From: Agrobacterium tumefaciens
GTDB lineage: Bacteria; Pseudomonadota; Alphaproteobacteria; Rhizobiales; Rhizobiaceae
DNA length: 64,000 bases
Direction: 5' to 3'
NCBI RefSeq assembly: GCF_005221325.1
Contig: NZ_CP039889.1
Location: 434,001 to 498,000, forward strand
This document shows positions 320 through 32,489 of the stretch, one piece after another (positions within the stretch are counted from its first letter, which is position 1; every line of letters begins with the position of its first letter). Below the pieces are notes generated by a model. That model saw nothing but the letters and a program-made list of their open reading frames with translations, was not told the DNA's origin and made no database searches. The position numbers and the translations under genes were made by a program.

Positions 320-1318
320 TTAGGCCGACTGGATCGTCTCGATCTTCCCGATACCGCCGACGATACCGGCGAAATCCTGCCAGACGCCCTGCGCGCCCTT
401 GCGCCATTCATCCAGAGCCTCCGGCTGCAGAACCTTCCCGCCCTTCGAAAGAGCAAGTGCGACCGACTTTACCTCGTCCTCGACGATCAGCTGATTGAAA
501 TATTGCGCACCTTCGCTGGAGGCTTCCGAGAGAACTTTCTTCTCTTCGTCGTCCAGCTGGTTCCAGAAGGTCGCACCATAATAGACGACGCCTGACGCCC
601 AGATATGGCCCGTTTCCGTCAGATAGGGAACGACCTCATAAAGCTTGAAGCCGGCATAGGCGGATTTGGTGAGATCCATGGCATCGGCCACGCCTGTCGC
701 CAGCGCATTATAGGTTTCCGTGATCGGAATACCGACCGGCGTCGTACCGAAGGCGCTCCACAGCTTGGTGTGTAATGGGCTCTGGATGACGCGGATCTTC
801 TTGCCTTCCAGCTGCTCCGGGCGGGTTACCGGTTCCTTGGTCAGCAGATGGCGCGCGCCGTAATTGATGAAATCGGCAGCGATGAATTGCTGGGCGGCGA
901 GCTTCGTCTTCAGATCAGTGCCTGTCTCGCCCGTCACCACCTTGCGCACATGATCGGCATCGCGGAACAGGAAGGGCAGATCGAGAATCTGCAGTTCCGG
1001 CACCCAGCCGGAGAGCGAGGAAACGGTGGAAAGGCTCGCCTGAACCGAGCCCAGGCGGATATTTTCCGCCACTTCCTTTTCACCGCCCAGCGCACCGCTC
1101 TTGACGATGTTGAAACGGAAACGGCCGGGCAACTTCGCCTCCACCAGTTCGCTGATCTTCACCCAGATTTTCGTCTCCGGCTTGTCGTCGGCAAACAGCG
1201 AGGCAACGGTGATGCTGCGGGTTCTGGCATTTGCCGTACGGACGAAGGCGGGTGCGGCCAGCGTCGCCGCACCGATGGCGGAGAGTTTCAGGAGATTGCG
1301 GCGATCGATAATAGTCAT
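320..1318 (-). CDS. TRAP transporter solute-binding subunit (DctP family)
   Basis: A periplasmic binding protein of 332 residues that captures a carboxylate-type (or sulfonate) substrate for the DctQM permease encoded just upstream. The N-terminus 'MTIIDRRNLLKLSAIGAATL' has a twin-arginine-like RR before a hydrophobic stretch and an Ala-x-Ala cleavage region, so Tat export is possible. The DctP-family arginine that usually clamps a carboxylate is visible in 'KKIRVIQSPLHT'. I chose the ATG at 1318 because it begins the signal peptide; an in-frame upstream start would add a proline-rich stretch unlike a signal sequence. It is the last gene of the leftward operon 5198-320. The ligand is not known. 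The neighbouring SsuD-like monooxygenase suggests an organosulfur acid, which is inference. Confidence 0.88.
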   Translation of the reverse strand: MTIIDRRNLLKLSAIGAATLAAPAFVRTANARTRSITVASLFADDKPETKIWVKISELVEAKLPGRFRFNIVKSGALGGEKEVAENIRLGSVQASLSTVSSLSGWVPELQILDLPFLFRDADHVRKVVTGETGTDLKTKLAAQQFIAADFINYGARHLLTKEPVTRPEQLEGKKIRVIQSPLHTKLWSAFGTTPVGIPITETYNALATGVADAMDLTKSAYAGFKLYEVVPYLTETGHIWASGVVYYGATFWNQLDDEEKKVLSEASSEGAQYFNQLIVEDEVKSVALALSKGGKVLQPEALDEWRKGAQGVWQDFAGIVGGIGKIETIQSA

Positions 1319-1334
1319 GAATAAAGCCCCGGAT

Positions 1335-3167
1335 TTAGAAGAAAATGGCCCAGGCGCACAGAATGGCCAGGGAAACGAGAAGAGAGACAAGATAAGGAAC
1401 CACGGCGCGGAAAAGTGCGGTGGCCGGAATGCGGGTGACGCCGCTGACCACGAAGATCAGCATGCCGAGCGGTGGCGTCAGGCCATGGATCATTAGATTG
1501 ACCACCAGGATGACGCCGAAATGGATCGGATCGATGCCGGCCGCCACGGCAGCAGGCAGCAGGATCGGCCCGAACAGCAGGATGGCCGCCCCGATATCCA
1601 GCACCAGTCCCACCACGAGCAGGATGAGGTTGGAAAGCAGAAGCACCGCGATCTTGCTGCCGCCGAGCAACGTCACGAAATCCGTGACGAGGCCTGAGAC
1701 ATTATCAACCGCCAAGAGGAAGGCGAAAGGCCCGGCCGTACCGATCAGAAGACCGATGGCCGCTGCCTCTCCAGCGGATTGTCGGAAGGTTGCAAAAATG
1801 CGCCCTGCCCCCAGCCGGTAACCAAAGCCGAGAAGTAGCGTGTAAAGCGCCGCAAGCGCTGCGGCTTCCGTGGTCGTGACAATGCCGATGCGGATGCCGA
1901 CCACGACGATCACGCCAAGACCGAAGGCCGGTATGGCTGCGATGGCCGAGCGCCAGCGCTCGGCGCCCGTCGCGCGCGGCAAGGTATCGACGCTTCGCAC
2001 ACTGAAATGGATCGCCACCGCAAGGCAGATCGCCATCAACCCGCCGGCAAAGAAACCGCCGACCAGCAGCGAGCCGACCGAAAGATTGGTGGCCGTTGCG
2101 AGGATGAGAAACGCGATGGAGGGCGGGATGACATTATCAAGCACCGAGGTGGCGGCGATGATCGCGCCCGCCTGCGCGGGCGGATATCCGTGCTTAACGA
2201 GTTCCGGCTGGAAGGTGGACGCGCCGAAGGCGGCATTGGCGACCGAAGAGCCGGATGCGCCGGAAAACAGCACGCTGGTCAGAAGCGTCGTCTGTGCCAG
2301 CCCTGCCCGCCGGTGGCCGACCATGGAGGCGGCGAAACGGACCAACTGGTTGGCGACGCCCGATTCCGTCAGCAGGCTTCCGGCCAAAAGGAAGAAGGGA
2401 ATGGCCAGCAGCAGGAATTTCGACATGCCCGTCACCGTCGAGGATACGATGGCCGGTTCCGGCAAGGTGCTGCCGAAGGCGATCGCCACATAAGCGGCGG
2501 CAAGGAAGGCATGGGCGAGCGGTGCCGCCAGCACCAGCCCCAGTGCCGCCGTCAGCGCCAGAAACAGGCTTGGCGGCAGGCTCGTATCGATAAACAGTTC
2601 CGGCAGGCCGACATAAGAAACGACCGCGATGGCGACGGAGAGCAGAACGGCAAGCGCCTTGCCTTCACCAACCCGTTGAAGCGCCAGATAGACAAAGATC
2701 AGCGCGCCGCCCGCTCCGAGAAAACCGAAGCGCACCCATTCCGGCAGGCCAAGCGTTGGCGACGTGCCGCCCAGCATGGCCGCGATCTCCACCCCGCCGA
2801 AGGCGAGGATGAGGGCTGCGACGAAGGAAAAGGCATCGGCCAGAACTTCGGTTGCGGCATGAAAGCGTTCCGGCAGGAAGCGCACGAATACATCCAGCCG
2901 CATGGCCAGAGCGCTCTTGAGGCTGAGCGGCGCGCCGACCGCAATCATCGCCACATTGAGCCAGATACCCAGATCTTCCGCGCCGATGAAACCGGTATGG
3001 AACAGGTATCGCAGGGCGACATTGACCAGCACCACCACAAGCAGCGTCGCAAGGATTGCGGCGGCAACCGCACCGAGCGCCTTGTCCAGAACGGCAAGCG
3101 CCCGTTCGGCCACACGTTGTGGACCAAAGCGCCGTTGCGCGATTGTTGTTGCCGGACTTGCCGTCAT
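1335..3167 (-). CDS. TRAP transporter fused DctQM permease
   Basis: A 610-residue inner-membrane protein in which the small DctQ subunit (roughly residues 1-170, four hydrophobic helices) is joined through an extra membrane stretch to the large DctM subunit (roughly 200-610), giving the complete permease in one chain. The DctM part shows typical glycine/alanine-rich segments such as 'SGASGSSVANAAFG' and 'LDNVIPPSIAF'. It uses an ion gradient to import the solute delivered by the binding protein encoded 16 bases downstream. The start at 3167 is preceded by a GGAG/GAAG Shine-Dalgarno; an upstream in-frame extension lacks one and reads as low-complexity sequence. Q-M fusions are known in TRAP systems, so the architecture itself is not novel. 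Confidence 0.88.
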   Translation of the reverse strand: MTASPATTIAQRRFGPQRVAERALAVLDKALGAVAAAILATLLVVVLVNVALRYLFHTGFIGAEDLGIWLNVAMIAVGAPLSLKSALAMRLDVFVRFLPERFHAATEVLADAFSFVAALILAFGGVEIAAMLGGTSPTLGLPEWVRFGFLGAGGALIFVYLALQRVGEGKALAVLLSVAIAVVSYVGLPELFIDTSLPPSLFLALTAALGLVLAAPLAHAFLAAAYVAIAFGSTLPEPAIVSSTVTGMSKFLLLAIPFFLLAGSLLTESGVANQLVRFAASMVGHRRAGLAQTTLLTSVLFSGASGSSVANAAFGASTFQPELVKHGYPPAQAGAIIAATSVLDNVIPPSIAFLILATATNLSVGSLLVGGFFAGGLMAICLAVAIHFSVRSVDTLPRATGAERWRSAIAAIPAFGLGVIVVVGIRIGIVTTTEAAALAALYTLLLGFGYRLGAGRIFATFRQSAGEAAAIGLLIGTAGPFAFLLAVDNVSGLVTDFVTLLGGSKIAVLLLSNLILLVVGLVLDIGAAILLFGPILLPAAVAAGIDPIHFGVILVVNLMIHGLTPPLGMLIFVVSGVTRIPATALFRAVVPYLVSLLVSLAILCAWAIFF

Positions 3168-3195
3168 GTTGTTCTTCTCCACTCCCGCACCATGC

Positions 3196-4323
3196 TCAGG
3201 AGGCCTTGGCCGAGAGGTCGCGGTCGAACAGGGTCGACCAGGTGAATTGTTTCGCCGCTGACACTTCCCGCGATACATCGAGACGTGGCAGAACCTTTTC
3301 GCCGAAGCGGAAGGCTTCCTCCAGCAATGGCATGCCGGATAGGATAAAGGTGTTCACACCCGCCTTCTTATAGGCCTCCAGCGTGCGGATGACAGTATCC
3401 GGCGAACCGACAATCGCGGTTCCCGGGCCCGGACGGACAAGCCCGATGCCGGCCCAGAGATTGGGAGCGATTTCCAGATCGTGCAGGTTTTCCGGCTTCT
3501 GCCCGCCATGCATCGCCGTCATGCGCTGCTGGCCGACGGAATCGGTCTTGCCGACAAAACGCTGGTTGGCGGCAATCGCGCGCTCATCCATGCGCCCGTA
3601 AAGGTCGGCGGCCGCCGCCCATGCTTCTTCATCCGTGTCACGCACGATGACATAGAGCCGAATGCCATATTCCAGTTCGCGGCCAAGCTGCTCCGCCCGC
3701 GCCTTGACGAGGTCGACCTTCGCGCCGATCTGATCGGGCGTTTCACCCCAGGAGAGATAGGTCTCGACATGTTTGGCGGCAACATCGATGGCCTTGTCCG
3801 AAGAACCGCCGAACCACAAGGGCGGCGGCTCTATGCCCTGCCCCACCGGCAGTGCGAGCTTCGCCCCCTCGGTCTGGAAATGCCGCCCCTTGAAATCCAC
3901 CGTCTCGCCGGCGAAAAGCCGGTGCCAGATCTGCAGATATTCATCCGCCATATCGTAACGCTCGTCATGCGGCATGGTCATGCCGTAAGCGCCGAGCATT
4001 TTCGCATCGCCAGAGACGACATTGATCAGCAGACGGCCACGCGAAAACTCCTGAAGCGTCGCCGCCATCTTGGCAAGCAGCGTCGGCGCAATCAGGCCCG
4101 GATGGATGGCGACCAGCAGCTTCAGCCGCTCGGTATAGGAGAGCAACGCACCCGCCAGAACCCAGACATCATGCGCGCCGGTGGCAAACAGCGCGCCGGT
4201 ATAACCCAGCTGATCGTAAGCCATCGCCAGCTGCCTGTAATAACCGAGATCGACCTTGCGGGAGCCTTCCGGGTGCCAGGGATAGGCGCCGTCGGGCGCG
4301 CACATGTACCAGAAAACATTCAT
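3196..4323 (-). CDS. LLM-class FMN-dependent monooxygenase, SsuD family
   Basis: This 375-residue protein is close in length and sequence pattern to alkanesulfonate monooxygenase SsuD: N-terminal 'MNVFWYMCAPDG', the block 'EFSRGRLLINVVSGD', 'GRHFQTEGA' and 'PPLWFGGSSDKAIDVAAKHVE'. SsuD uses FMNH2 and O2 to oxidise the carbon bearing a sulfonate, releasing sulfite and an aldehyde in the cytoplasm. The start overlaps the stop of the preceding SsuA-like gene as ATGA (4320-4323), so the two are probably translationally coupled. No flavin reductase gene is adjacent; reduced flavin would have to come from elsewhere, for example SmoA 26 kb away. Family call secure; substrate unknown. A related but distinct paralogue is SmoC in this window. 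Confidence 0.88.
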   Translation of the reverse strand: MNVFWYMCAPDGAYPWHPEGSRKVDLGYYRQLAMAYDQLGYTGALFATGAHDVWVLAGALLSYTERLKLLVAIHPGLIAPTLLAKMAATLQEFSRGRLLINVVSGDAKMLGAYGMTMPHDERYDMADEYLQIWHRLFAGETVDFKGRHFQTEGAKLALPVGQGIEPPPLWFGGSSDKAIDVAAKHVETYLSWGETPDQIGAKVDLVKARAEQLGRELEYGIRLYVIVRDTDEEAWAAAADLYGRMDERAIAANQRFVGKTDSVGQQRMTAMHGGQKPENLHDLEIAPNLWAGIGLVRPGPGTAIVGSPDTVIRTLEAYKKAGVNTFILSGMPLLEEAFRFGEKVLPRLDVSREVSAAKQFTWSTLFDRDLSAKAS

Positions 4324-5198
4324 CTGTCGCCTCCGACGCTGGCTGATTGCGGGGCCGGGTTTTGCCCGGCCAGAACCGGCAAAGAGACCGGTAAAGAGAA
4401 GTGGCCGTGCCTGTAAAGCGTATCGGCCTCCTCCTGCTGTTCGGCAAGGATATTTTCAGCGGCGGGCACCACGGAAAGATCGCGTGAGCGCAGCACCTTC
4501 GCCCAGGATGCCGCATCACCCTCACTGCCCGGTTCGGCGGCAAGCAGCGCTGCAGCCCTGTCGATATCCGCCATGACGGCGCGGCCGACGCGGTCCAGTT
4601 CGGCCGCAATCGCCTGTCGTGTTTCCTGCGCTATATTGTGACGCGCCAGCGTCCAGAACAGCGATCGGTTGGGAATGGTAGAACCACAACGGACCAGAAG
4701 GCTGATCTCCTCATGGGTCAGAGCCTTTTCCAGCCGTGGCGACATCGTTACCCAGGCATCGACACGGCCTTCCACGAGGTCAAGCAGGCTGTCGCTGTCA
4801 CCGCTTTCAATCCGCGTCACGTCCGAAAGACCAAGACCCGCCCCTTCCAGGCTGCGCGCCAGAAGATAGGTGTGAAACGACCCATCGATCAGCGATATGC
4901 GCTTTCCCGAGAGATCAGCGGCTGAGCGGATCGGGCTGTCGCGCCGCACGAGGATTGCGCCATTGGCGGGCCTTGGCGCGGAAGCGGCGATATAGACCGC
5001 CGCAAGCCCGCGCGCGTCCGCTTCAATGGGCGGCGTCGAGCCGGTGCCACCGAAATGGATGTCGCCCTTTTCCAGCAGAGCCGCCGTATCGCGTCCTTCG
5101 CGATAGGTCACGAATTCCGGATTAAATTGCTCGAAAGCGCCGGGCCAGAGCCGGGCGAGCCGTAAATGCAGATTGTTGGGATGGACCCCGATTTTCAT
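4320..5198 (-). CDS. SsuA/NMT1-like periplasmic-binding-fold protein without a signal peptide
   Basis: The 292-residue product resembles nitrate/sulfonate/taurine binding proteins (SsuA, NMT1/THI5 fold): 'EKGDIHFGGTGSTPPIEADARG', 'NGAILVRRDSPIRSAADLSGKR' and 'VDAWVTMSPRLEKAL'. Unlike true SsuA it starts 'MKIGVHPNNLHLRLARLWPG', directly in the first beta strand of the fold, with no signal peptide or lipobox, so it should be cytoplasmic. No ABC permease or ATPase gene lies next to it. The same fold without export is used by the desulfinase DszB, and a ligand-sensing role is another option; the single cysteine (in 'LLVRCGSTIPN') does not support a DszB-like mechanism. First gene of the leftward operon, sharing ATGA with the monooxygenase. 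Function not assigned. Confidence 0.75.
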   Translation of the reverse strand: MKIGVHPNNLHLRLARLWPGAFEQFNPEFVTYREGRDTAALLEKGDIHFGGTGSTPPIEADARGLAAVYIAASAPRPANGAILVRRDSPIRSAADLSGKRISLIDGSFHTYLLARSLEGAGLGLSDVTRIESGDSDSLLDLVEGRVDAWVTMSPRLEKALTHEEISLLVRCGSTIPNRSLFWTLARHNIAQETRQAIAAELDRVGRAVMADIDRAAALLAAEPGSEGDAASWAKVLRSRDLSVVPAAENILAEQQEEADTLYRHGHFSLPVSLPVLAGQNPAPQSASVGGDR

Positions 5199-5224
5199 GT
5201 CGACACCTCATTTCGCAATCAATC

Positions 5225-5237
5225 TACTTTTTTATAG
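5225..5237 (+). promoter_or_regulatory. Direct repeat copy A in the divergent promoter region
   Basis: TACTTTTTTATAG occurs here and again at 5375-5387, in the 211-base space between the SsuA-like gene and the ArsR-family gene. Each copy sits near one of the two divergent starts. The exact match in an otherwise non-repetitive AT-rich region suggests a regulator site or duplicated promoter element. Binding by the ArsR protein is inferred. Confidence 0.4.
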
Positions 5238-5287
5238 AGTGTTTTCGAGGAACGTTTTGGCGATCCTCTTTCGGAAAGCGAAAGAGA

Positions 5288-5308
5288 AATCTATCAATCC
5301 GGTAGATT
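5288..5308. promoter_or_regulatory. Inverted repeat AATCTA-N9-TAGATT in the divergent promoter region
   Basis: A 6-bp perfect inverted repeat with a 9-base spacer, centred between the two direct-repeat boxes; a further AATCTA lies at 5221-5226. ArsR-family dimers bind AT-rich dyads of this size, so it is a candidate operator. Confidence 0.35.
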
Positions 5309-5374
5309 TTAAAAATTCTGAAACCGCCAGAAAGTTCGCGCCATCAAACCATTGAAATTTATCGTTATACATTT

Positions 5375-5387
5375 TACTTTTTTATAG
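5375..5387 (+). promoter_or_regulatory. Direct repeat copy B in the divergent promoter region
   Basis: Second exact copy of TACTTTTTTATAG, ending 22 bases before the GTG start of the ArsR-family gene. At this distance it could be the promoter -10 region, an autoregulatory operator, or both. Confidence 0.4.
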
Positions 5388-5409
5388 TCTGAAACATGGG
5401 CCTTTAGTT

Positions 5410-5775
5410 GTGACGAAACCGGTTTCCAATCTCATCTGCCGCAGTGTGGTGGAAGCAAGCGAACTTTTGAAGCTTGTCGCCAACGCCAACCGTCTGGCCA
5501 TTGTCTGTTACCTCATGGAAACGGAAGCGTCCGTTTCAGCACTTGAATACGAACTCGGCATTCAACAGCCCACACTTTCCCAGCAGCTAGCCGAACTGCG
5601 CGACGCCGGTGTGATCGAAGGTTCGCGTGAAGGCAAGGCGGTGATCTATCGCGTCACCGACCCGCGCATTATCGAGCTGGTTCTGACCCTGCGTGGTCTT
5701 TACACCGACCTTTCCGATGTGACGGGCAAGAAAGGCAGGCGCGCTTTGCCGCTCGATGAAGCGATGTTCGACTAG
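5410..5775 (+). CDS. ArsR-family transcriptional regulator, BigR/SqrR-like
   Basis: A 121-residue winged-helix protein. The segment 'LLKLVANANRLAIVCYLMET' and the recognition helix 'LGIQQPTLSQQLAELRDAGV' closely follow the BigR/SqrR/YgaV group, which senses reactive sulfur through two conserved cysteines. The first cysteine (in 'AIVCYL') is present. The second, expected near the C-terminal helix, is absent: that helix reads 'LVLTLRGLYTDLS'. The other cysteine here is near the N-terminus ('NLICRS'). The start is GTG at 5410 with no clear Shine-Dalgarno; an ATG 14 bases upstream is closed by TAG after three codons. It is divergent from the organosulfur operon and three bases upstream of the GST gene. 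Control of both sides is likely but inferred. Confidence 0.85.
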   Translation: MTKPVSNLICRSVVEASELLKLVANANRLAIVCYLMETEASVSALEYELGIQQPTLSQQLAELRDAGVIEGSREGKAVIYRVTDPRIIELVLTLRGLYTDLSDVTGKKGRRALPLDEAMFD

Positions 5776-5778
5776 CCT

Positions 5779-6408
5779 ATGATCGACCTCTACACCTGGA
5801 TCACGCCCAACGGCCTCAAAATCTCGATTGCGCTGGAAGAACTCGGCCTGCCCTATCGCAGCCACGCCATCGACATCGAAAAAGGCGAGCAGTTCGCGGC
5901 CGATTATATCCGCATCAATCCCGGCTCGAAAATTCCGGCAATCGTCGACAATGACAACGGCACCGTCCTGACGGAATCAAACGCGATCCTCCTCTATCTC
6001 GCCGAAAAGGCCGGCCGGCTCCTGCCCGCCTCTAGCGCCGAGCGACTGACAGTCACCGAATGGCTGATGTGGCAGGCCGCCAATTTCGGCCCGACACTCG
6101 GTTATGCCCATTATTTCCTGACCTATCATGCCAGAGAGGCCCCCTTTGCCGAGACGCGTTTTACCGCGGATGTGGAGCGCCTCTACCGGACATTGAACGA
6201 CCGTTTAACGGGGCGGGAATATGTGGCTGGAGATTTTTCCATCGCCGATATCGCCATCTGGCCATGGGTCTCGCGTTTCGCGCGCCACAAAATCAATCTC
6301 GATGATTTTCCGGCGGTACAGCGGTGGTATCGCCAGCTTGGACAGCGGGAAAGTTTTAAGCGCGGTTATCGCGTCCCCTTCGCAACGTCGGATGTGCCGG
6401 GACTTTAA
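5779..6408 (+). CDS. Glutathione S-transferase, YfcG-like (Nu class)
   Basis: A 209-residue cytoplasmic GST with an N-terminal thioredoxin-fold domain ('MIDLYTWITPNGLKISIALE', 'GSKIPAIVDNDNGTVLTESNAILLYL') and an alpha-helical C-terminal domain containing 'FSIADIAIWPWVSRF'. Thr9 and Asn11 in 'TPNG' match the residues used by E. coli YfcG instead of a catalytic Tyr or Ser; YfcG-type enzymes reduce glutathione disulfides. The gene begins three bases after the ArsR stop, so they form one transcript. Its last four bases overlap the convergent ABC ATPase gene. Next to the sulfonate-type monooxygenase it may process a glutathione adduct or protect against persulfides; this is inference. Confidence 0.88.
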   Translation: MIDLYTWITPNGLKISIALEELGLPYRSHAIDIEKGEQFAADYIRINPGSKIPAIVDNDNGTVLTESNAILLYLAEKAGRLLPASSAERLTVTEWLMWQAANFGPTLGYAHYFLTYHAREAPFAETRFTADVERLYRTLNDRLTGREYVAGDFSIADIAIWPWVSRFARHKINLDDFPAVQRWYRQLGQRESFKRGYRVPFATSDVPGL

Positions 6409-8240
6409 CAGGCGACGAGATGGCCGGGCGAGACTTCGCGATACTCACGCGGCTTCACGACATAATCGACCGCTCGGATCGGGCTTTTCAGCTCGTCATT
6501 CGCCGCACCGCGCCTTGTGTTGCGGCGGTCCGGGTCCGGCACCGGCACGGCGGCCATCAGCTTGCGGGTATAGTCGTGCTGCGGATTGTCGAAAACGGCA
6601 GCACGCGGGCCGATTTCGACGATCTCACCGAGATACATCACCGCCACCCGGTGGCTGACGCGTTCCACCACAGCCATGTCATGGGATATGAACAGGAAGG
6701 CAAGATCGAGACTTTGCTGCAGATCCAGCATCAGGTTGATGACCTGCGCCTTGATCGAGACATCCAGCGCCGAGACGCTTTCATCGGCGACGATGACCTT
6801 CGGCTGCAGCGCCAGCGCGCGGGCAATGCAGATGCGCTGGCGTTGGCCACCGGAAAACTCGTGCGGGTAACGCGCCGCCATATCCGGCGAGAGACCGACC
6901 TTTTCCAGCATGTCGGCCACTACCTCCTTCGCCTCGCGGGCGCTGCCCATGCGATGCTCCAGAAACGGCTCGGCAAGCGCCGCACCCACTGTCATGCGCG
7001 GGTTGAGCGAGGCGAAAGGGTCCTGAAAGATCATCTGCACCGTCTTGCGCATTTCGCGCATGCCCATCTTGTCGAGGGCGAGAATATTCTCGCCGTTCAC
7101 CACCACCGAACCGGCATCCGGCTCGATCAGCCGCATGATGGCACGACCGGTGGTCGACTTGCCGCAGCCGCTCTCGCCCACCAGCGATAGAGTCTCCCCG
7201 GCCCTCAGATCGAAGGACACATTCTCCACCGCGTGGACGCGGCCGCTGAGCCGTCCCAGCAGGCCGGAGTGAATGTCGAAACGCTTGGTCAGACCCTCCA
7301 CCTTCAGCACCGGCTGGGCGCTGACATCAACGGTATCGGCCGGGCGTGCCGGTTCCTGCGTTTCCCCCGTGGTGGTGTTGACGATGGGAAACCGGAGTGG
7401 CCTTTCCTCGCCCTTCATCGACCCCAGAACCGGAACGGCGGACAGAAGCGCCCGGGTATAGGGATGTTTGCCGCGATGGAAGATATCTGCCGTCGCGCCC
7501 ACTTCCACCTGCTCGCCACGATACATGACGACGGTACGGTCGGCGATCTCAGCCACCACGCCCATATCGTGGGTGATGAACAGGACGGAGGTGCCCTCCT
7601 CTTCCTGAAGCGTCTTGATGAGGTCGAGAATCTGGCCCTGAATGGTCACATCGAGCGCCGTCGTCGGCTCGTCGGCGATCAGGAGCGTCGGCCGGGAAGC
7701 GAGCGCCATGGCAATCATCACGCGCTGACGCATGCCGCCGGAAAAGCGGTGCGGATATTCATCGAAACGCGAGGCGGCGGAGGGGATGCGGACCTTTTCC
7801 AGCAGGCGGATCGTCTCGGCCCGCGCATCCACTTTCGACATCGGCTGATGGCACAGCAGGGCTTCGGAAATCTGGTCGCCGATGGTGAACAGCGGATTGA
7901 GGCTGGTCATCGGCTCCTGAAAGATCATCGCCACCTCATTGCCCCGCACCCGCCGCATGGCGTCCTCGGAAAGCGAGAGCAGGTTGCGACCGCCGAGCAG
8001 GATTTCACCCTGAACCCTGCTGCTTTCCCGATCCAGCAGTCGCATGATGGAAAGCGATGTCACGCTTTTGCCCGACCCGCTTTCACCGACGATCGCAACC
8101 GTCTCGCCCGGCCCGACATCAAAGGAAATATCACGCACCACGGGTTTCCAGCCGCCATCCACGTGAAAGGACGTGGTGAGATTGCGGACGGAAAGCACGG
8201 CATCTTCTACACTAAGCGGTACTGCCTGCGGCATGGTCAT
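6405..8240 (-). CDS. Dipeptide/oligopeptide ABC transporter, fused double ATPase (GsiA-like)
   Basis: A 611-residue protein with two complete ABC domains in tandem. The N-terminal half has Walker A 'GESGSGKS', signature 'FSGGMRQRVMIAMAL' and Walker B 'LLIADEPTTALD'. The C-terminal half has 'GESGCGKS', 'FSGGQRQRICIARAL' and 'VIVADESVSALD'. The Walker B glutamate of the second half is present in 'ADES'. It powers the DppB/DppC-type permeases encoded at 12.4-14.2 kb. The start at 8240 has AAGGGA eight bases upstream; a longer in-frame start would put that site inside the gene. It is the last gene of the leftward catabolic set, separated from the SelA-like gene by a 120-base palindromic element. 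Confidence 0.92.
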   Translation of the reverse strand: MTMPQAVPLSVEDAVLSVRNLTTSFHVDGGWKPVVRDISFDVGPGETVAIVGESGSGKSVTSLSIMRLLDRESSRVQGEILLGGRNLLSLSEDAMRRVRGNEVAMIFQEPMTSLNPLFTIGDQISEALLCHQPMSKVDARAETIRLLEKVRIPSAASRFDEYPHRFSGGMRQRVMIAMALASRPTLLIADEPTTALDVTIQGQILDLIKTLQEEEGTSVLFITHDMGVVAEIADRTVVMYRGEQVEVGATADIFHRGKHPYTRALLSAVPVLGSMKGEERPLRFPIVNTTTGETQEPARPADTVDVSAQPVLKVEGLTKRFDIHSGLLGRLSGRVHAVENVSFDLRAGETLSLVGESGCGKSTTGRAIMRLIEPDAGSVVVNGENILALDKMGMREMRKTVQMIFQDPFASLNPRMTVGAALAEPFLEHRMGSAREAKEVVADMLEKVGLSPDMAARYPHEFSGGQRQRICIARALALQPKVIVADESVSALDVSIKAQVINLMLDLQQSLDLAFLFISHDMAVVERVSHRVAVMYLGEIVEIGPRAAVFDNPQHDYTRKLMAAVPVPDPDRRNTRRGAANDELKSPIRAVDYVVKPREYREVSPGHLVAC

Positions 8241-8294
8241 GATCGTTCCCTTCTTTTCTTCTCGTTTGAACTCAGGCACGGCGTGGCGGCTTGT

Positions 8295-8417
8295 TTCTTC
8301 TCCCCGCCGGGGAGAAGGTGGCCCGAAGGGTCGGATGAGGGGGCAACGTCAGCGATTGACAGCACCCTTGCCCCCTCATCCCGCTGCCGCGACCTTCTCC
8401 CCGGCGGGGAGAAGAAG
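8295..8417. repeat. Rhizobial intergenic palindromic element, about 120 bases
   Basis: Two inverted arms (about 8295-8346 and 8368-8417) share CTTCTCCCCGCCGGGGAGAA, then a variable middle and ATGAGGGGGCAA. Each arm also contains its own small palindrome. It fills the space between the SelA-like gene and the ABC ATPase gene, which read in the same direction, so it would be transcribed and fold into a long stem. The arms belong to a repeat type I recognise as frequent between genes in Rhizobiaceae. Roles in mRNA stability or partial termination are inferred. Confidence 0.75.
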
Positions 8418-8452
8418 CTCGCGGCACCCGCTCGTTCCATATGCAGTCGTTA

Positions 8453-9649
8453 TTAGTCCGGCCAGCGCAGCATGCCGTCGAAGCGGTGGCGGCTGCGGTC
8501 TTCGAACGGTGTAGCGATCACCTCGTTGGAGGCGCGCGCCTTATCCAGTTCTTCCGCCAGGCGGGAAGCCACGATGGTTTCCTGGCCGGGATGCAGGTTG
8601 CAGGGGTCGAGATAGAAATAACGGTGTTCAACCTCGTGATCGCGGGCAATGATCGGCGGATTGCCTCTGGCCAGCGCCGTCGTCAGGTCCCATGCCGTGA
8701 TATGCGCTTCTTCGGCATCGATGATGACGCGCAGCCGGTCGAGCGGATTGTTGGTCGGATCGGGCTCGATCAGCGCCGTCACGCCGGGGCGTCCGTCCAG
8801 CGTCTTTTTCCAGAGGTTGAGATAGCCGGTTTCGCGCTCGCGAATGCCGTCATGGTCACGCTTTTCCCAGGTTTCCAGCGCCGCCATGACGCCGTAAATG
8901 CTTTCCTTGCCGACCTTCATGCCGCGGCCGATGCCCATATTCTGGAGGAAAGCATTGCGCACCAGTTCCTTTTTGCCGGCGACGATGCCGGAAGTGGGAC
9001 CGCCAAGGAACTTGTGGCCGGAATAGAGGACAACATCCGCGCCCGTCGCCAGAAACAGCTCCAGGTCATATTCGGACGCCGCATCGACGATAACAGGCAC
9101 GCCCTTGGCGTGGGCAATCTCGACGAATTCGGAAAGGTGCAGCAGACCGTAATTCACCACATGGTGCGAGACGACATAAACCGCCGCAGCCGTCTTTTCG
9201 GTAATGGCGTTTTCCATGTGGAAACGATGGGTCGATGTCGCCTGGCCGACCAGCACCACCTTGCCGCCGCCGAGGCGGATTGCCTGATCCACCGGCGCGC
9301 CATAGCTCACCACATGCCCCATTTGCACCAGAACTTCGTTCTTCTCAGGCGCGACATCGGGCAGCTTTTCGATGGCCAGCAGATTATTGCCGGTAATGGC
9401 GCCCGCCACCGCAAGGCTGATGCCGGAGGAACAGGACGCCGTGACGAAACCAGCCTCGCCGCCCGTCAGCCTCGCGATGATCGCGCTTGCCTTGCGTTGC
9501 AGATCATTGATCTCGACGAATTGCGGCAGGATGGCCGCCATGGCCTGCACGGCCTCGGGAACGACAATCGACGCGCCGAGCGAGGTCATGGTGCCCGAGA
9601 CGTTGATGACCGGGCGAAGGCCGATCCTGCTTCTGATATCCTCGGTCAT
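8453..9649 (-). CDS. SelA-like PLP-dependent enzyme (COG3964-associated type)
   Basis: A 398-residue fold-type I PLP protein of the SelA-like group: '[18 protein letters not shown]', '[20 protein letters not shown]' and '[12 protein letters not shown]' with the PLP-nitrogen aspartate near residue 189. The PLP lysine is in '[16 protein letters not shown]', near residue 213. Relatives include D-glucosaminate-6-phosphate ammonia-lyase and proteins encoded beside COG3964 amidohydrolases, as here. A beta-elimination or deamination reaction on the product of the amidohydrolase is likely, and the RidA partner fits, since RidA proteins hydrolyse enamine/imine products. Start ATG 9649 has AGGAGA seven bases upstream. 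Divergent from the IclR gene. Substrate unknown. Confidence 0.85.
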
Positions 9650-9688
9650 GTCTTTCTCCTGTCTTTGCGATGCGATAGGCATCGACAT

Positions 9689-9704
9689 ATATGCCATAAT
9701 AATG
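9689..9704 (-). promoter_or_regulatory. Candidate IclR-regulator box 1
   Basis: Read on the minus strand this is CATTATTATGGCATAT. It matches 14 of 16 positions of the sequence upstream of the binding-protein gene (16026-16041). It lies in the divergent region between the SelA-like gene and the IclR gene, overlapping the expected promoters. Operator function is inferred from the shared sequence and context. Confidence 0.45.
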
Positions 9705-9737
9705 TAATAGCTTCTCAAAACCGATGAGGAGCCAAAA

Positions 9738-10574
9738 TTGGACGCCCATAGACTGGACGAAATGCCTTCAACCGCCGTGTCTCCCACGGAGGAAAATCCG
9801 GACGCGAAGACGGCCAAGCGCTCGCGCGTCAGCGGCATCGACCGTGCGCTTCAGGTTATTGATTACCTTTACGAAACCGGATCGCCAGCCGGCGCTTACG
9901 CGATTGCCAAGGCGATTAAGGCGCCGCTTTCCACCGTCTATGTGATCATTGACGATCTCGTCGAAAAGAACATGCTGGCGCGCAACGCCGATGGCAACAT
10001 CTGGCTCGGCGCGCGGCTTTACCATTATGGCCTTGCTTATGCCCGCTCGCTGGATTTCATGGGTGTCGCCACCCACGAAATGCACGATCTGTGCCGCCAT
10101 GCGGGCGAGACCGTGCAGCTTTGCGGCCGCGATGGCGACCATATGCTGGTGCTTGCCATGGCCGATGGTCCGAGCCATTTTCAGGTCGCATCGCGCGTCG
10201 GCACCCGCGTTCCCCTGAACTGGACGGCGTCGGGCCGCCTGCTCGTCGGTCATTTGCCGGAGGCGGAGCGTGTCGAACTGTTCAAGCGCTGCGCCCGCAC
10301 CTCGCCCACCGGCCGCGCGGAAATCAACCCGGAGACCCTGTCGCAATCGGCAGGCGCCGCTTTCCATGACCGGCTGTCGATACAGGTCGCCGAATCCGAT
10401 TACGCCGTCGCCTGCATCGCCTCGCCGATCTGCGATAACAGGGGCGAATGCGTTGCGACGATTTCCATCGTGCTGCCGGAACAGAAGGTGCTGGCGGACG
10501 AAAACCATTACACCGAACAGGTCAGGGTCTCGGCGGAACGGATCGAAAAGCTGATGGGCTGGCGCAACCACTGA
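9738..10574 (+). CDS. IclR-family transcriptional regulator
   Basis: A 278-residue regulator with an N-terminal winged helix ('[20 protein letters not shown]', '[19 protein letters not shown]') and a C-terminal effector domain ('[20 protein letters not shown]', '[20 protein letters not shown]'). IclR effector domains bind small carboxylates or their derivatives. The start is TTG 9738 because GAGGAG at 9725-9730 is correctly spaced for it, whereas the next ATG at 9762 has no such site. It is divergent from the SelA-like gene and convergent with RidA, in the middle of the transport and catabolism genes, so it very probably controls them. Confidence 0.9.
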
Positions 10575-10580
10575 ATAGCC

Positions 10581-11075
10581 TCAACCTTTGAGCGCGACGA
10601 TCGCTTCGATCTCAACGGTGATGTTGCCCGGCAATGAGCCGAAACCCACGGCGGAGCGGGCATGTTGCCCCGCATCGCCGAACACATCGATGAAGAGATC
10701 GGAGCAGCCATTGATAACGCTCGGATGATCGCGGAAATCGCTGACGGCATTGACCATGCCGAGCAGCTTGACGACTTTTTTCACACGCGACAGATCACCC
10801 AGCGCTTCATGCATGACGGCAAGCAGATTGATGCCGGTGAGACGCGCATGATTATAGGCCTCTTCCAGCCCGATTTCCGCGCCCACCTTGCCGGCATAGA
10901 GACGGCCGTTTTCTTCCCGCGGCCCCTGGCCCGAGAGATAAAGCATGTTGCCTTCCACCACATGGGTGACGAAATTGGCAATTGGCGGCGGCGGCGGCGG
11001 CAGGGAGATGCCGAGCGCAGCGAGCCGGTCATAGGGCGAAAGGTGCCCTTCTGCATCAAGCGAAGACTGTTTCAC
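10581..11075 (-). CDS. RidA-family protein (YjgF/YER057c/UK114)
   Basis: A 164-residue cytoplasmic protein with a RidA core: 'NMLYLSGQGPREENGRLYAG', 'DLSRVKKVVKLLGMVNA' and, near the C-terminus, 'ARSAVGFGSLPGNITVEIEA', holding the conserved substrate-carboxylate arginine (ARS) and downstream glutamate. RidA trimers hydrolyse reactive enamines/imines formed by PLP enzymes to keto acids and ammonia. About 25 residues precede the core, including a proline run ('LPPPPPPIA'). The start is GTG 11075 with GAGGA upstream. It follows the amidohydrolase gene in the same direction, which places it next to the SelA-like PLP enzyme in function. Confidence 0.88.
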   Translation of the reverse strand: MKQSSLDAEGHLSPYDRLAALGISLPPPPPPIANFVTHVVEGNMLYLSGQGPREENGRLYAGKVGAEIGLEEAYNHARLTGINLLAVMHEALGDLSRVKKVVKLLGMVNAVSDFRDHPSVINGCSDLFIDVFGDAGQHARSAVGFGSLPGNITVEIEAIVALKG

Positions 11076-11156
11076 GCGAATTCCTCATAATGCCGGGACG
11101 GGTATCCCGTAATGTCTGCGGAAGGCGGAGGGTATGCCCCGCCATTCCATTCGGGT

Positions 11157-12380
11157 TCAGCGCCAGGAATAACCATGGCTGTGGCGCACCAGCTTGCGCG
11201 CCCTTGGAATATAACGGCTGGCGGCAATCGCCTCGGCACCGATGACCGCGTAACGCGGCTCGAACAGACGCGTCAGGCGCGCCACATCGCCATTTGAATC
11301 GGTCGCTTCCAGATCGGAATCCACGAGATCGAAAATGGTGAAGTCGGCGCGCTGGCCAACATCGAGACGGTTTTCCATATCGAGGCGGATGACGGAGGCC
11401 GGATTGCGGGTAACGGCCTCGACGACATTTTCGAAGGGCATATCAACCGACAGGAGCTTCGACATGGTCGTCGCCAGATCCCAGACCGGGAAATTCATCG
11501 AATGGCCATGCAAATCCGTCGAGATCGAGAAGGGCAACAGGCCGCGTGCAATCGCCGCTTCCGCCACCTTGAAGGAGAAGGAGGCGCCGCCATGGCCGAT
11601 ATCCAGCCGGATGCCTTCACCGGCGCAGCGTTCGGCAAGGTTGAACAGGTCCTCGTCTTCCATGATGCTGGAGCCCGACTTGCCGTTGAAGCAATGGGTC
11701 ACGACATCACCGGGGCCGAGGATTTCCAGCACCTCGTCATAGAGTGCCGGCGGTTCGCCCACATGCACCATCATCGGCACTTTCAGGATCTTGGCGATCT
11801 TCTTGCCGAGCTTGACCGGCGTTACACCCCAGGAGCCGGTGATGACATGGCTCGCCCGCACCTTCAGGCCGACAATATGCTCGCTGTTTTCGGCGTAACA
11901 TTCGAGGATACGATCGAGGTCGATATCCTTGATGTCGCGCAGTTCCGGCACCCGGTTGCAGGCGACAAGGCCGATGGAACCGAGATTGAGGAAGGCCTTG
12001 ATGCGCTCTCTCGAAGGTTCGATGATATATTCGCGGAAACCATGGAAATTCGCCTCGCCAGCCGAACCGGCATCCACCAACGTGGTCACGCCACGCTCCG
12101 CGCCGCATTCGGAGGGACGAATGGAGATATCGGTGCCGCCATGCCAGATATGCACATGCAAATCGACCCAGCCGGGCGAAATGAAGGCGCCCTTGGCATC
12201 GATACGCTGCGCATCCGCAGGCGCCTGCAGGGCAGAGCCAACGGCTGCGATCTTGCCGTCGCCGCCGATCAGAATATCGGTCGGGGCATGTGACGCACCC
12301 TTTCCGAAACCGACGGGTTTGACATTGGTGAGAAGAATGGGAGCTTGAAAAGGCGTTTTTGCCTGTTCGCCGGACGACAT
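11157..12380 (-). CDS. COG3964 amidohydrolase (Atu3266-like; not a dihydroorotase)
   Basis: A 407-residue metal-dependent amidohydrolase. The TIM-barrel metal ligands are visible: H75 and H77 in 'DLHVHIWHGG', the carboxylated lysine K173 in 'GLKVRASH', H206 in 'MMVHVGEP', H229 in 'VVTHCFNG' and D289 in 'ISTDLHGHS'. COG3964 proteins were long mislabelled dihydroorotases. From the literature I recall that the Agrobacterium member Atu3266 hydrolyses acetyl-(R)-mandelate and similar alpha-acyloxy acids, with the natural substrate unknown. Start ATG 12380 has AAGGGA upstream and lies two bases after the permease stop. With a peptide-type importer, SelA-like enzyme and RidA, it probably opens an acylated amino or hydroxy acid after uptake. 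Confidence 0.87.
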   Translation of the reverse strand: MSSGEQAKTPFQAPILLTNVKPVGFGKGASHAPTDILIGGDGKIAAVGSALQAPADAQRIDAKGAFISPGWVDLHVHIWHGGTDISIRPSECGAERGVTTLVDAGSAGEANFHGFREYIIEPSRERIKAFLNLGSIGLVACNRVPELRDIKDIDLDRILECYAENSEHIVGLKVRASHVITGSWGVTPVKLGKKIAKILKVPMMVHVGEPPALYDEVLEILGPGDVVTHCFNGKSGSSIMEDEDLFNLAERCAGEGIRLDIGHGGASFSFKVAEAAIARGLLPFSISTDLHGHSMNFPVWDLATTMSKLLSVDMPFENVVEAVTRNPASVIRLDMENRLDVGQRADFTIFDLVDSDLEATDSNGDVARLTRLFEPRYAVIGAEAIAASRYIPRARKLVRHSHGYSWR

Positions 12381-12381
12381 A

Positions 12382-13257
12382 TTACAAATCCCTTCGCAGT
12401 CTTGGATCGAGCATGTCCCGCAGCCCGTCGCCGACCATTTGCAGCGACAGCACGGAAAGAATGATGGCAAAGCCGGGGAAATAGGTCATCCAGTCAGCCT
12501 GGCCGATATATTGGCGGCCTGCCGAGATCATGGTTCCCCAGGTGGGTATTTCGGGGCTGACACCGAGCCCCAGAAACGAAAGCCCCGCCTCGGCCAGCAT
12601 GGCGCTGGCGAAAAGGAAGGTGCATTGCACGAGGATGGGCGAGACCAGATTGCGCAGCACATGCCGCGTCATGATGTGGAAGGTGGAAATGCCAAGCGCC
12701 TTCGCCGCCTCCACATAGGGCAACTCACGGATCACCAGTGTCGAGGCGCGCACGATGCGGGCAAGGCGCGGCGAATAAACGACTGCAAGCGCGATGATGA
12801 CAGTCGTCAGCGACGGGCCGAGTGCCGCGACCAGCGCAATGGCCAGCAGAATATCCGGAAATGCCATCATCGCATCGATCAGGCGCGCAATCGGCGTATC
12901 CAGCTTCTGGAAGAAGCCGGCAAGCAGGCCGAGCGTGATGCCGATGACCGACGAGAGAAAAACAACGGCCGCGCCAACCAGAAGCGACAGTCTTCCGGCA
13001 TAGATGGTGCGGGAAAACACATCGCGGCCAAATTCGTCGGTGCCGAACCAGTACAATTCGCTCGGCGGCTTCAGCCGGTTCACGATCGACAGTTTCGACG
13101 GCGAATAAGGCGCAATCATCGGCGCGAAAACCGCCAGCAGCACGAAGATGAAAAGCACGATGAGACCGGCAGCGACTGTCTTGCGTTTCAGGAGACGCCG
13201 AATGAACAGGATGGTCGGGTTGCGCGCCGGCGGGGTGGTGGAAACAATATTGGCCAT
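12382..13257 (-). CDS. ABC transporter permease, DppC type
   Basis: A 291-residue inner-membrane permease of the dipeptide/oligopeptide family. It has an N-terminal cytoplasmic stretch, a first helix ('VAAGLIVLFIFVLLAVFAPM') and a transport core with the ATPase-contact EAA loop 'VEAAKALGISTFHIMTRHVL'. It ends 'LQMVGDGLRDMLDPRLRRDL', the usual DppC tail. It pairs with the DppB-type permease whose TGA overlaps its ATG by one base (13257). The amidohydrolase begins two bases after its stop, so transporter and enzyme are made from one message. Confidence 0.93.
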   Translation of the reverse strand: MANIVSTTPPARNPTILFIRRLLKRKTVAAGLIVLFIFVLLAVFAPMIAPYSPSKLSIVNRLKPPSELYWFGTDEFGRDVFSRTIYAGRLSLLVGAAVVFLSSVIGITLGLLAGFFQKLDTPIARLIDAMMAFPDILLAIALVAALGPSLTTVIIALAVVYSPRLARIVRASTLVIRELPYVEAAKALGISTFHIMTRHVLRNLVSPILVQCTFLFASAMLAEAGLSFLGLGVSPEIPTWGTMISAGRQYIGQADWMTYFPGFAIILSVLSLQMVGDGLRDMLDPRLRRDL

Positions 13258-14198
13258 CAGTAACGAACCCTCGGATCGACCAGCAAATAGAGCATGTCGA
13301 TTGCAAAATTGATGAGCACGTAAAGCCCGGCGATGACGAGAAGCGCGCCCTGAATGACCGGATAATCACGCCGGAGCACGGCCGACACGACAAGATTGCC
13401 GACACCCGGCAGGCCGAAGACGGTTTCCGTGACGACAGCGCCGGAAATCAGCACTGCGGCGGTGAGGCCAAGCACGGTGAGAATGGGAATGAGCGCATTC
13501 TTCAGCGCATGTTTCATCACCACCCGGTGCTCCCTAACGCCCTTGGCTCTGGCGGTGCGGACATAATCGTCACCGAGAACATCCAGCATCGAGGCGCGGG
13601 TGAAGCGTAGAATGAGCGCTGAGGAAACGAGGCCGAGCGCAATCGCCGGCAACGTCAGGTGATACATGCGCTCAAGGAAGCTTGCGCCCGGACCGCCATA
13701 TCCCGACACCGGAAACAGATCGAGCCGGACGGCGAAGAACTGCATGAGGATGAGGCCGAGCCAGAAGCTCGGAATGCTCGCCGCCAGCATCGCAATGGTG
13801 GTCGCGGCTTGGTCCACGAAGGAACCGCGCCGGTAAGCGGCATAGATGCCGATGGGCAGTGCGATGACGCTGGCAATCAGCAGCGAAAAGATCGTCAGGA
13901 AAAAGGTTGGTTCCGCCCGGTCCAGCAGCGCCGATCCAACCGGCATGTTGAGAAAGATCGACTGGCCGAGATCGCCCTTCAGCAACTGGCCGATATAATA
14001 GACATATTGCACGCCGAGTGATTGATCGAGACCGAGGCGGGTGCGCAGCTCGGCAATATCCTGCGCCGAAGCATCCGGCCCCAGCATCACGGCGGCCGGA
14101 TCACCGGGGGTGACGCGCAGGATGACGAAAACGATGGTGACGACGAGGAACATCACCACGATCATTCCTGCAAGTCTTTGGAAAATATACCGTATCAC
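13257..14198 (-). CDS. ABC transporter permease, DppB type
   Basis: A 313-residue permease with the typical DppB N-terminus 'IRYIFQRLAGMIVVMFLVVT', followed by 'FVILRVTPGDPAAVMLGPDA', several hydrophobic helices and the EAA loop 'YVRTARAKGVREHRVVMKHA'. The C-terminus 'FAIDMLYLLVDPRVRY' is also typical. The start is GTG 14198 with a GGAG ten bases upstream. A palindromic repeat separates it from the upstream binding-protein gene. It forms the heterodimeric channel with the DppC-type protein. Confidence 0.93.
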   Translation of the reverse strand: MIRYIFQRLAGMIVVMFLVVTIVFVILRVTPGDPAAVMLGPDASAQDIAELRTRLGLDQSLGVQYVYYIGQLLKGDLGQSIFLNMPVGSALLDRAEPTFFLTIFSLLIASVIALPIGIYAAYRRGSFVDQAATTIAMLAASIPSFWLGLILMQFFAVRLDLFPVSGYGGPGASFLERMYHLTLPAIALGLVSSALILRFTRASMLDVLGDDYVRTARAKGVREHRVVMKHALKNALIPILTVLGLTAAVLISGAVVTETVFGLPGVGNLVVSAVLRRDYPVIQGALLVIAGLYVLINFAIDMLYLLVDPRVRY

Positions 14199-14277
14199 GT
14201 ATCAAGGCTCCGAAGCGTGTGATAGGCCGCGACCAGGCGACGGTTGAACTGAGTTAAAGATGGGTGCCGGCAATTCC

Positions 14278-14430
14278 GGCGCTCAGGATCGGGAAAAACG
14301 CTTACTTCCGTCATGCCGGACTTGATCCGGCATCCAGCCACCACGCGTCCGCGTGGTGAAAGAGTCCCTTGTGATCAAGGACTTGATCGCGCTGGATCCC
14401 GGCTCAAGGCCGGGATGACGGGTGCGGCTA
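14278..14430. repeat. Compound palindromic repeat between binding-protein and permease genes
   Basis: Outer arms at 14309-14337 and 14392-14420 are inverted copies matching at about 25 of 29 positions, of the 'CGTCATGCCGGACTTGATCC' type found widely between alphaproteobacterial genes. Inside lie two further hairpins: CCACGCG/CGCGTGG near 14341-14356 and CCTTG/CAAGG near 14367-14380. The whole can fold like a cloverleaf. It sits in the 263-base gap inside the leftward operon, just 3' of the binding-protein gene, where such structures often protect the upstream message. No gene is visible in this gap. Confidence 0.75.
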
Positions 14431-14461
14431 TAGCACCCAGCACCCCGAGACCAAGCTGATC

Positions 14462-32413: not shown

Positions 32414-32468
32414 GCAATTCCTCCTCAGGGCCGCTCTCGTTTTTCTTGCATAACATCAAGAAATATGT

Positions 32469-32489
32469 AAATCAATGATGTATCAATTT
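32469..32489 (+). promoter_or_regulatory. Candidate SmoD operator 1
   Basis: AAATCAAT, two variable bases, then TGTATCAATTT. The reverse complement of 33360-33380 is identical at 19 of 21 positions. It lies between the divergent smoC and smoD genes, 25 bases before the smoD start, and is an imperfect dyad (AAATYRATA type) as expected for a GntR dimer. Confidence 0.6.

What the first reader, a model, noticed from the sequence alone, without database searches (positions are those of the whole stretch)
320..6408. Possible undescribed organosulfur-use island
Seen: a leftward set of an SsuA-like protein without signal peptide, an SsuD-family monooxygenase, fused DctQM and DctP, divergent from a BigR/SqrR-like ArsR regulator and a YfcG-like GST. 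Known: SsuD enzymes release sulfite from sulfonates, and BigR/SqrR regulators sense reactive sulfur. Inference: TRAP import of a sulfonated or sulfur-containing acid, oxidative C-S cleavage, and control by a sulfur-species sensor. A TRAP system replacing the usual SsuBC ABC importer next to an SsuD-like enzyme is not an arrangement I know as characterised.
Basis: partly seen in the sequence, partly recalled or inferred. Interest (0 to 1): 0.72.

Follow-up and report, generated by a model that had tools for sequence, protein, structure and literature searches.

The report
Internalised SsuA–oxygenase organosulfur cassette
A small gene cassette in soil and plant-associated bacteria pairs an unusual flavin monooxygenase with a sulfonate-binding protein that has lost its export signal, and brings in its substrate through either of two unrelated transporters, so it probably feeds on a sulfur compound that nobody has yet assigned to it.

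Summary
The six genes are there as described. The set GST–ArsR ⇄ SsuA′–monooxygenase–DctQM–DctP is kept in 35 of 40 orthologous loci, with differing flanks outside Agrobacterium; in others an Ssu-type ABC importer with its own exported SsuA replaces the TRAP system. So the core is SsuA′–monooxygenase: same 10 of 247 family genomes, adjacent in all ten, and also in Rhodobacterales and Streptomyces. The enzyme is SsuD-derived but not ordinary SsuD: it keeps Trp and both sulfonate-clamping Arg, but the sulfonate loop RGG[AS] is RPGP in 40 of 40, with His and Tyr replaced. SsuA′ has no signal peptide and an altered pocket. The regulator has two invariant Cys, but not the α2/α5 pair that defines BigR/SqrR sensors; its operator occurs only at this locus. 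Best reading: import of an organosulfur anion, FMNH2-dependent C–S cleavage, sulfite release, with SsuA′ as a cytosolic partner of unproven role. Substrate unknown. New variant of a known kind; TRAP import of sulfonates itself is known.

The parts
320..1318 (-). DctP, TRAP solute-binding protein (twin-arginine-type N-terminus, by eye)
   Evidence: PF03480 205 bits. Arg156 and Arg176 invariant in 35 of 35; the residue aligned with Asn of the ENP motif of 4p47 is Leu216 in 35 of 35
1335..3167 (-). DctQM, fused TRAP permease
   Evidence: PF04290 + PF06808 in one ORF
3196..4323 (-). LLM monooxygenase of the RPGPGT clade (core), SsuD-derived
   Evidence: 429/413 bits to SsuD models, below cut-offs; RPGPGT invariant in 40 of 40; site table and tree
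4320..5198 (-). SsuA′: SsuA-like protein without signal peptide (core); 4-bp overlap with the oxygenase gene
5220..5237 (-). operator-like site CTATAAAAAAGTAGATTG (reads on - strand), next to SsuA′
   Evidence: one of the only 2 genome matches at up to 2 mismatches; two copies in 34 of 35 TRAP-type loci
5370..5387 (-). second operator-like site CTATAAAAAAGTAAAATG, next to arsR
   Evidence: 150 bp from the first
5410..5775 (+). ArsR-family regulator with Cys10/Cys33
   Evidence: best solved relative BigR 3pqj; both Cys in 39 of 39, no Cys after residue 80 in 39 of 39
5779..6408 (+). YfcG-like glutathione transferase, co-directional with arsR; accessory
   Evidence: PRK13972 171 bits, cut-off 332; tblastn hit in 35 of 35 TRAP-type loci, none in ABC-type or plasmid loci

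Best explanation
This is a self-contained, ArsR-controlled cassette for using one particular organosulfur anion (most likely a sulfonate or near relative). Steps: (1) the anion enters by a TRAP system or, in related loci, by an Ssu-type ABC importer; (2) inside the cell the SsuD-derived oxygenase, with FMNH2 from a reductase encoded elsewhere, oxygenates the carbon next to sulfur, so that sulfite leaves; (3) SsuA′, an SsuA that stayed in the cytosol and whose pocket changed, works with the oxygenase, either handing over or chemically preparing the substrate or product; (4) the ArsR protein represses both promoters through two operators and lets go when a cytosolic signal acts on its Cys10/Cys33 pair. 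Shown by sequence: gene set, its conservation, the transporter swap, loss of the signal peptide, changed pocket residues, paired operator-like sites. Inferred: the substrate class, C-S cleavage, the role and location of SsuA′, repression and the inducer.
For: Cassette kept in 35 of 40 orthologous loci, flanks differing outside Agrobacterium. TRAP exchanged for ABC: the L044 binding protein passes the SsuA_fam cut-off (185 against 163.5 bits), its permease and ATPase have SsuC/SsuB as best models, below cut-off; relatives of this ABC are in L045-L047, L088-L090, R. lusitanum and Streptomyces. Two unrelated importers for one core point to a sulfonate-like anion. SsuA′ and oxygenase co-occur in the same 10 of 247 genomes; gene spacing -4 to +15 bp in 39 of 40. 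FMN-phosphate residues, the O2-site Asn, and W192/R222/R297, the sulfonate clamp of MsuD, are kept in 18 of 18. A separate SBP exists in ABC-type loci, so SsuA′ is not the importer's binding protein. One reductase serving several such enzymes is known (passages of PMC13352529), so its absence from the cassette is no obstacle.
Against: No substrate, reductase partner or sulfite fate is shown. The fourth sulfonate contact of MsuD, a backbone NH at residue 299, cannot form where the clade has Pro300; the MsuD His227 and Tyr330 positions are Tyr and Met in 17 of 18, and Arg77, near the flavin, is His in 18 of 18: this could mean another anion. DctP lacks the usual Asn. The L048 binding protein falls below the SsuA_fam cut-off (156.5). 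LLM oxygenases include enzymes with other reactions.
Confidence: 0.6

Rival explanations
1. Ordinary alkanesulfonate desulfonation: a second SsuD with a TRAP importer, and SsuA′ merely a mis-sorted leftover.
For: 46-51% identity to the nearest SsuD-type loci L051-L060; Trp and both Arg kept; the L044 importer passes SsuA_fam.
Against: The genome already holds a canonical SsuD (L002: RSGAGT, His, Tyr). The changed loop is invariant in 40 of 40. SsuA′ has about 80 invariant columns over 19 sequences down to 49% identity, so it is no relic.
Confidence: 0.17
2. A sulfur-free route: the TRAP/ABC system imports a carboxylate or other anion, and the oxygenase oxidises it, as other LLM enzymes (RutA, NtaA type) do.
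For: Loss of the backbone-NH sulfonate contact; the best DctP relatives in PDB are named as dicarboxylate-type, a generic name; DctP keeps the two Arg that hold carboxylates in other TRAP proteins too.
Against: Closest relatives of oxygenase, SsuA′ and ABC-type importer are Ssu-family; regulator nearest to sulfur-responsive BigR.
Confidence: 0.15
3. Detoxification rather than nutrition: the cassette clears a thiol-reactive or glutathione-conjugated compound, the ArsR protein sensing it.
For: GST hit in all 35 TRAP-type loci; a gamma-glutamyltransferase follows DctP in Thioclava; two-Cys regulator with a dedicated operator.
Against: Dedicated importers are unusual for a poison; no GST hit in ABC-type loci or in the three plasmid TRAP loci; the glutathione genes differ between lineages.
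Confidence: 0.08

Closest known systems
ssuEADCB alkanesulfonate system (SsuA, SsuD, SsuBC)
   Same: Oxygenase and SsuA′ are nearest to SsuD and SsuA; order A-D kept; ABC-type loci have SsuCB-like genes plus an exported SsuA-like protein
   Different: SsuA′ without signal peptide and with changed pocket; oxygenase loop RPGPGT, no RSC segment, Tyr/Met for His/Tyr; TRAP in most loci; no SsuE in the cassette
MsuD (methanesulfonate monooxygenase, PMC8234197)
   Same: FMN-phosphate and O2-site residues and three of four sulfonate contacts (W195, R225, R296)
   Different: S/A299 backbone NH precluded by Pro; H10, H227, Y330 and R77 replaced
TRAP import of a sulfonate: isethionate-binding IseP (PMC11668362)
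   Same: DctP with the two Arg that clamp a sulfonate or carboxylate
   Different: Asn217 of IseP corresponds, by inference, to Leu216; desulfonation here would be by oxygenation
Sulfo-SMO sulfoquinovose pathway (name recalled; a like cluster lies in this window)
   Same: SsuD-family oxygenase, Agrobacterium
   Different: Sugar ABC importer, GH31, aldo-keto reductase; its oxygenase is about 35% identical to this one
DszB sulfinate desulfinase and other cytosolic binding-protein-fold enzymes (Thi5, MqnD)
   Different: The DszB nucleophile Cys27 (recalled) has no conserved counterpart; the only invariant Cys of the 40 Rhizobiales proteins (C171) is absent in Streptomyces and Terrarubrum, which have no Cys at all
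BigR/SqrR persulfide-sensing ArsR regulators (PMC10509353)
   Same: ArsR family, alpha2 Cys, BigR is the best solved match
   Different: No alpha5 Cys; extra N-terminal Cys10; operator found at this locus only

Membership tests
SsuD alkanesulfonate monooxygenase | Reaches NCBIfam SsuD cut-offs (510 / 518.2 bits) | tested here: not met
   429 and 413 bits; Streptomyces member 342 and 337
SsuD/MsuD alkanesulfonate monooxygenase | Sulfonate-binding motif: W195, R225, R296 and S/A299 in an RGG[AS] loop | tested here: not met
   W, R, R kept; loop RPGP in 40 of 40; RPGPG[TS] in 18 of 18 clade rows, 0 of 11 comparison rows
Two-component flavin monooxygenase, group C (LLM) | FMN-phosphate residues (H, R, Y, SS) and O2-site Asn104 | tested here: met
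   Kept in 18 of 18 clade rows. Arg77, near the flavin O2, is His in 18 of 18; the lid DSVG is DGTG in Streptomyces
SsuA sulfonate-binding protein | Exported (signal peptide) | tested here: not met
SsuA sulfonate-binding protein | Sulfonate contacts Gln36, Gly68, Gly86, Ser141 (X. citri numbering) | tested here: not met
   Align with His6, Gly35, Gly53, Phe108: both Gly kept, Gln and Ser changed (mapped by hand from the printed alignment)
SsuA sulfonate-binding protein | Fold | tested here: met
DszB desulfinase | Catalytic Cys27 / His60 / Arg70 (recalled) | tested here: inconclusive
   A Cys in the first 40 residues in only 1 of 40 (L016, position 33); the profile match (96.6%) covers 170 columns that leave out the N-terminal catalytic part, and MAFFT did not align that part reliably
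BigR/SqrR persulfide sensor | Cys pair in alpha2 and alpha5 | tested here: not met
   alpha2 Cys33 in 39 of 39; no Cys after residue 80 in 39 of 39; definition from passages of PMC10509353
BigR | NCBIfam equivalog cut-off 155 bits | tested here: not met
   84.4 bits
TRAP transporter | DctP plus DctQ and DctM | tested here: met
IseP-like sulfonate-binding TRAP protein | Two Arg and one Asn on the sulfonate | tested here: not met
   Arg156, Arg176 in 35 of 35; the Asn position is Leu216 in 35 of 35 (position taken from the 4p47 alignment, IseP itself was not aligned)
Sulfite-releasing monooxygenase | Turns an organosulfur compound over to sulfite | not testable with these tools
   needs an enzyme assay

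The most novel reading that the evidence does not exclude
SsuA′ is a new family of cytosolic enzymes: an exported sulfonate-binding protein that was kept inside, exchanged its sulfonate-holding Gln for His and its Ser for an aromatic residue, and now acts together with RPGPGT oxygenases on a sulfur compound that neither SsuD nor MsuD handles. The pair, from Actinomycetes to Alphaproteobacteria, would be a new two-protein C-S cleaving unit that plugs into whichever importer is at hand, in many Alphaproteobacteria under a two-Cys ArsR sensor of a new type.
Probability: 0.33. Interest if true: 0.78.

Novelty: new variant of a known kind. Interest (0 to 1): 0.6.

Why it matters
Organosulfur compounds are a main sulfur source in soil, and the substrates of many SsuD-like enzymes are unassigned (general knowledge). 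Here a clade with its own loop signature, a constant partner protein and two exchangeable importers gives a handle: DctP and the ABC-type binding protein should hold the same ligand, which makes the substrate findable. It would also be a case of a transport protein turned into an intracellular partner or enzyme, and the database names given to these genes (SsuD, SsuA, BigR) would mislead.

Tried and rejected
SsuA′ as a desulfinase of DszB type: the fold fits, but only 1 of 40 proteins has a Cys in the first 40 residues, and the Streptomyces and Terrarubrum proteins have no Cys at all. The MAFFT alignment misplaced the DszB N-terminus, so I cannot say which SsuA′ residue stands where Cys27 is; another catalytic residue is not excluded.

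SsuA′ as the binding protein of the importer: rejected, because ABC-type loci and Streptomyces have a separate one. The Ti plasmid locus has only a permease, no ATPase or second binding protein of this type.

A wider regulon of the ArsR protein: the operator pattern has only the two local matches in the genome. In the four ABC-type loci scanned the pattern was absent (0 of 4); a different palindrome is visible there by eye and was not tested.

GST, gamma-glutamyltransferase, NIPSNAP and DszB-like neighbours as clues to the substrate: each is confined to one lineage or one importer type, so I drew no substrate from them.

The genome samples gave a narrow view: 1 of 385 (class, the window's own genome) and 3 of 398 (phylum, all in the window's family) at E 1e-40, although the plasmid and protein searches found Rhodobacterales, other Hyphomicrobiales and Streptomyces members. 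The samples thus understate the range, and the Streptomyces gene context rests on a single plasmid. The Microbispora relative L055 has an intermediate loop (RGGPGL) and no SsuA hit beside it. In the tree the 18 clade oxygenases are split from the 11 comparison sequences with local support 0.992; within them the Streptomyces one is on a long branch.

Left unused: one structure job, one protein search, two Foldseek and three VIA jobs. Literature: the searches showed no description of this gene set; I judged by the listed titles and abstract beginnings (in one search 15 of 262 papers were listed), and the library holds open-licence papers only.
Full report
OBSERVATION. The window lies in a 6.1 Mb genome; the nearest named loci are Agrobacterium/Rhizobium (98-99% identity of the oxygenase). 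The SsuA-like and oxygenase genes overlap by 4 bp. The SsuA-like protein starts directly at its first β-strand, with a TGA in frame just upstream.

CONSERVATION. A scan of named genomes with the oxygenase gave 54 loci; 40 are orthologues at 77-99% identity (L011-L050), then identity drops to about 51% and below. In 35 of the 40 the order GST–ArsR ⇄ SsuA′–oxygenase–DctQM–DctP is kept (the GST match is split in L031 and partial in L050). The nine Agrobacterium-type loci L011-L018 and L049 share their flanks; outside them I clustered the ORFs of all loci (90 aa or more, 40% identity): the families found in more than six such loci are those of the cassette, of the ABC variant (with other ABC ATPases drawn in), and ORFs antisense to them; others, in 4-6 loci, are bound to one lineage, such as the R. 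leguminosarum group. In the window's family, SsuA′ (E up to 1e-40) is in 10 of 247 genomes and the oxygenase (E up to 1e-130) in 10 of 247, the same ten, side by side in each.

THE TRANSPORTER IS EXCHANGEABLE. In L044-L047 (Ochrobactrum and kin) ArsR, SsuA′ and oxygenase are followed by an SsuC-like permease, an SsuB-like ATPase and a second SsuA-like protein with a signal sequence. The L044 binding protein scores 185 bits against the SsuA_fam cut-off of 163.5; its permease and ATPase have SsuC and SsuB as best models but below cut-off. L048 (Methylobacterium) has SsuA′, oxygenase and an SBP (156.5 bits, below cut-off), without ArsR, permease or ATPase hits. Among plasmids, seven records hold SsuA′ at 39-52% identity; I opened six (H12 was not opened): in 6 of 6 the oxygenase follows SsuA′. 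Thioclava and Marinibacterium have TRAP genes; Terrarubrum has TRAP genes and, further upstream, an Ssu-type ABC; R. lusitanum and Streptomyces have the ABC genes, and in Streptomyces they match those of L044 at 37-60%; a Ti plasmid has only the permease. Regulators vary there: ArsR divergent in Thioclava, R. lusitanum and the Ti plasmid, same strand in Marinibacterium, no ArsR hit in Terrarubrum or Streptomyces (Streptomyces has IclR and TetR genes). GST hits are in all TRAP loci of Rhizobiales chromosomes examined (35, 3), and in none of the ABC-type loci nor the three plasmid TRAP loci. So the core is SsuA′ plus oxygenase.

OXYGENASE. The MsuD paper (outline, passages and sections 6, 7 and 10 seen) defines the sulfonate site: W195, R225, R296, and the backbone NH of residue 299 in an RGG[AS] loop, with H10 and H227 in the second shell and Y330 near the C-terminal Glu that reaches in. 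In this clade W192, R222 and R297 are kept; the loop is RPGPGT in 40 of 40 loci. In a table of 29 sequences the 18 clade members have RPGPG[TS]; of 11 comparison sequences none does, though L055 has Pro at the 299 position (RGGPGL) and L059/L060 have RPGAGT. A Pro has no backbone NH, so that contact cannot form. The H227 position is Tyr in 17 of 18 (His in Streptomyces), the Y330 position Met in 17 of 18 (Asn in Streptomyces), MsuD Arg77 is His in 18 of 18, and two residues of the RSC segment are deleted. FMN-phosphate residues and the O2-site Asn are intact in 18 of 18. The tree splits the 18 from the 11 with local support 0.992. The genome's own canonical SsuD (L002) has RSGAGT, His and Tyr. 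Hence: same reaction machinery, changed substrate pocket.

DctP. It keeps the two Arg that in IseP hold a sulfonate (passages of PMC11668362); where 4p47 has Asn in its ENP motif it has Leu216, and Lys218 follows, in 35 of 35. Its ligand cannot be named from this.

REGULATION. ArsR has Cys10 and Cys33 in 39 of 39 and no Cys after residue 80. Persulfide sensors of this family are defined by Cys in α2 and α5 (passages of PMC10509353); only the α2 Cys is met. Two copies of an imperfect palindrome, best form CAATCTATAAAAAAGTAGATTG, stand next to the two start codons, about 150 bp apart, in 34 of 35 TRAP-type loci (L043 has one; up to 3 mismatches). In the genome the pattern occurs only there, the reversed control nowhere. 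So it looks like a dedicated switch; binding was not shown.

KNOWN OR NEW. TRAP import of a sulfonate is known (IseP). SsuD/MsuD chemistry is known. In the searches named under Tried and rejected I saw no description of a signal-less SsuA next to an RPGPGT oxygenase, nor of the TRAP/ABC exchange; most subscription papers were not searchable. I rate it a new variant of a known kind. The claim of organosulfur use rests on family descent, three kept sulfonate contacts and the Ssu-type swap; it is an inference.

Noticed in passing
window 30363-39886: Sulfo-SMO-like sulfoquinovose cluster (pathway and SmoC names recalled): the LLM enzyme at 31256-32413 (-) scores 885 and 788 bits to PDB 7olf and 7oh2, beside an aldo/keto reductase, a regulator-like ORF, a sugar-type ABC importer and a GH31-type glycosidase. 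A second sulfonate-type locus about 24 kb from the finding.
   Followed up: partly
L100 5190-10979 (Streptomyces sp. SAT1 plasmid): Gene row with a DszB-like binding-protein-fold gene carrying an RCPVP motif (30% to DszB), an SBP with lipobox by eye, permease, ATPase, SsuA′ and the oxygenase (4-bp overlap). Possible sulfinate step in the same pathway.
   Followed up: partly
L102 12947-14539 (Thioclava): Gamma-glutamyltransferase gene directly after DctP (340 bits, below the cut-off of 358); with the GST of the Rhizobiales loci a second glutathione-linked neighbour.
   Followed up: no
L101 392-12999 (Terrarubrum flagellatum plasmid): A small NIPSNAP protein lies between oxygenase and DctQM; three more LLM oxygenases and an Ssu-type ABC importer are next door.
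   Followed up: no
L104 7474-10781 (Ti plasmid of strain Q15/94): ArsR, SsuA′, oxygenase and an ABC permease sit near an octopine/nopaline-dehydrogenase-family gene on a Ti plasmid.
   Followed up: no
window 6405-15994: Neighbouring block kept in the Agrobacterium-type loci L011-L018 and L049: dipeptide-type ABC importer genes, a SelA-like PLP enzyme, an IclR regulator and an amidohydrolase (names by eye); looks like a separate unit.
   Followed up: no
L055 10001-11062 (Microbispora): Intermediate oxygenase with loop RGGPGL, Asn/Leu at the Tyr/His positions and no SsuA hit beside it.
   Followed up: partly
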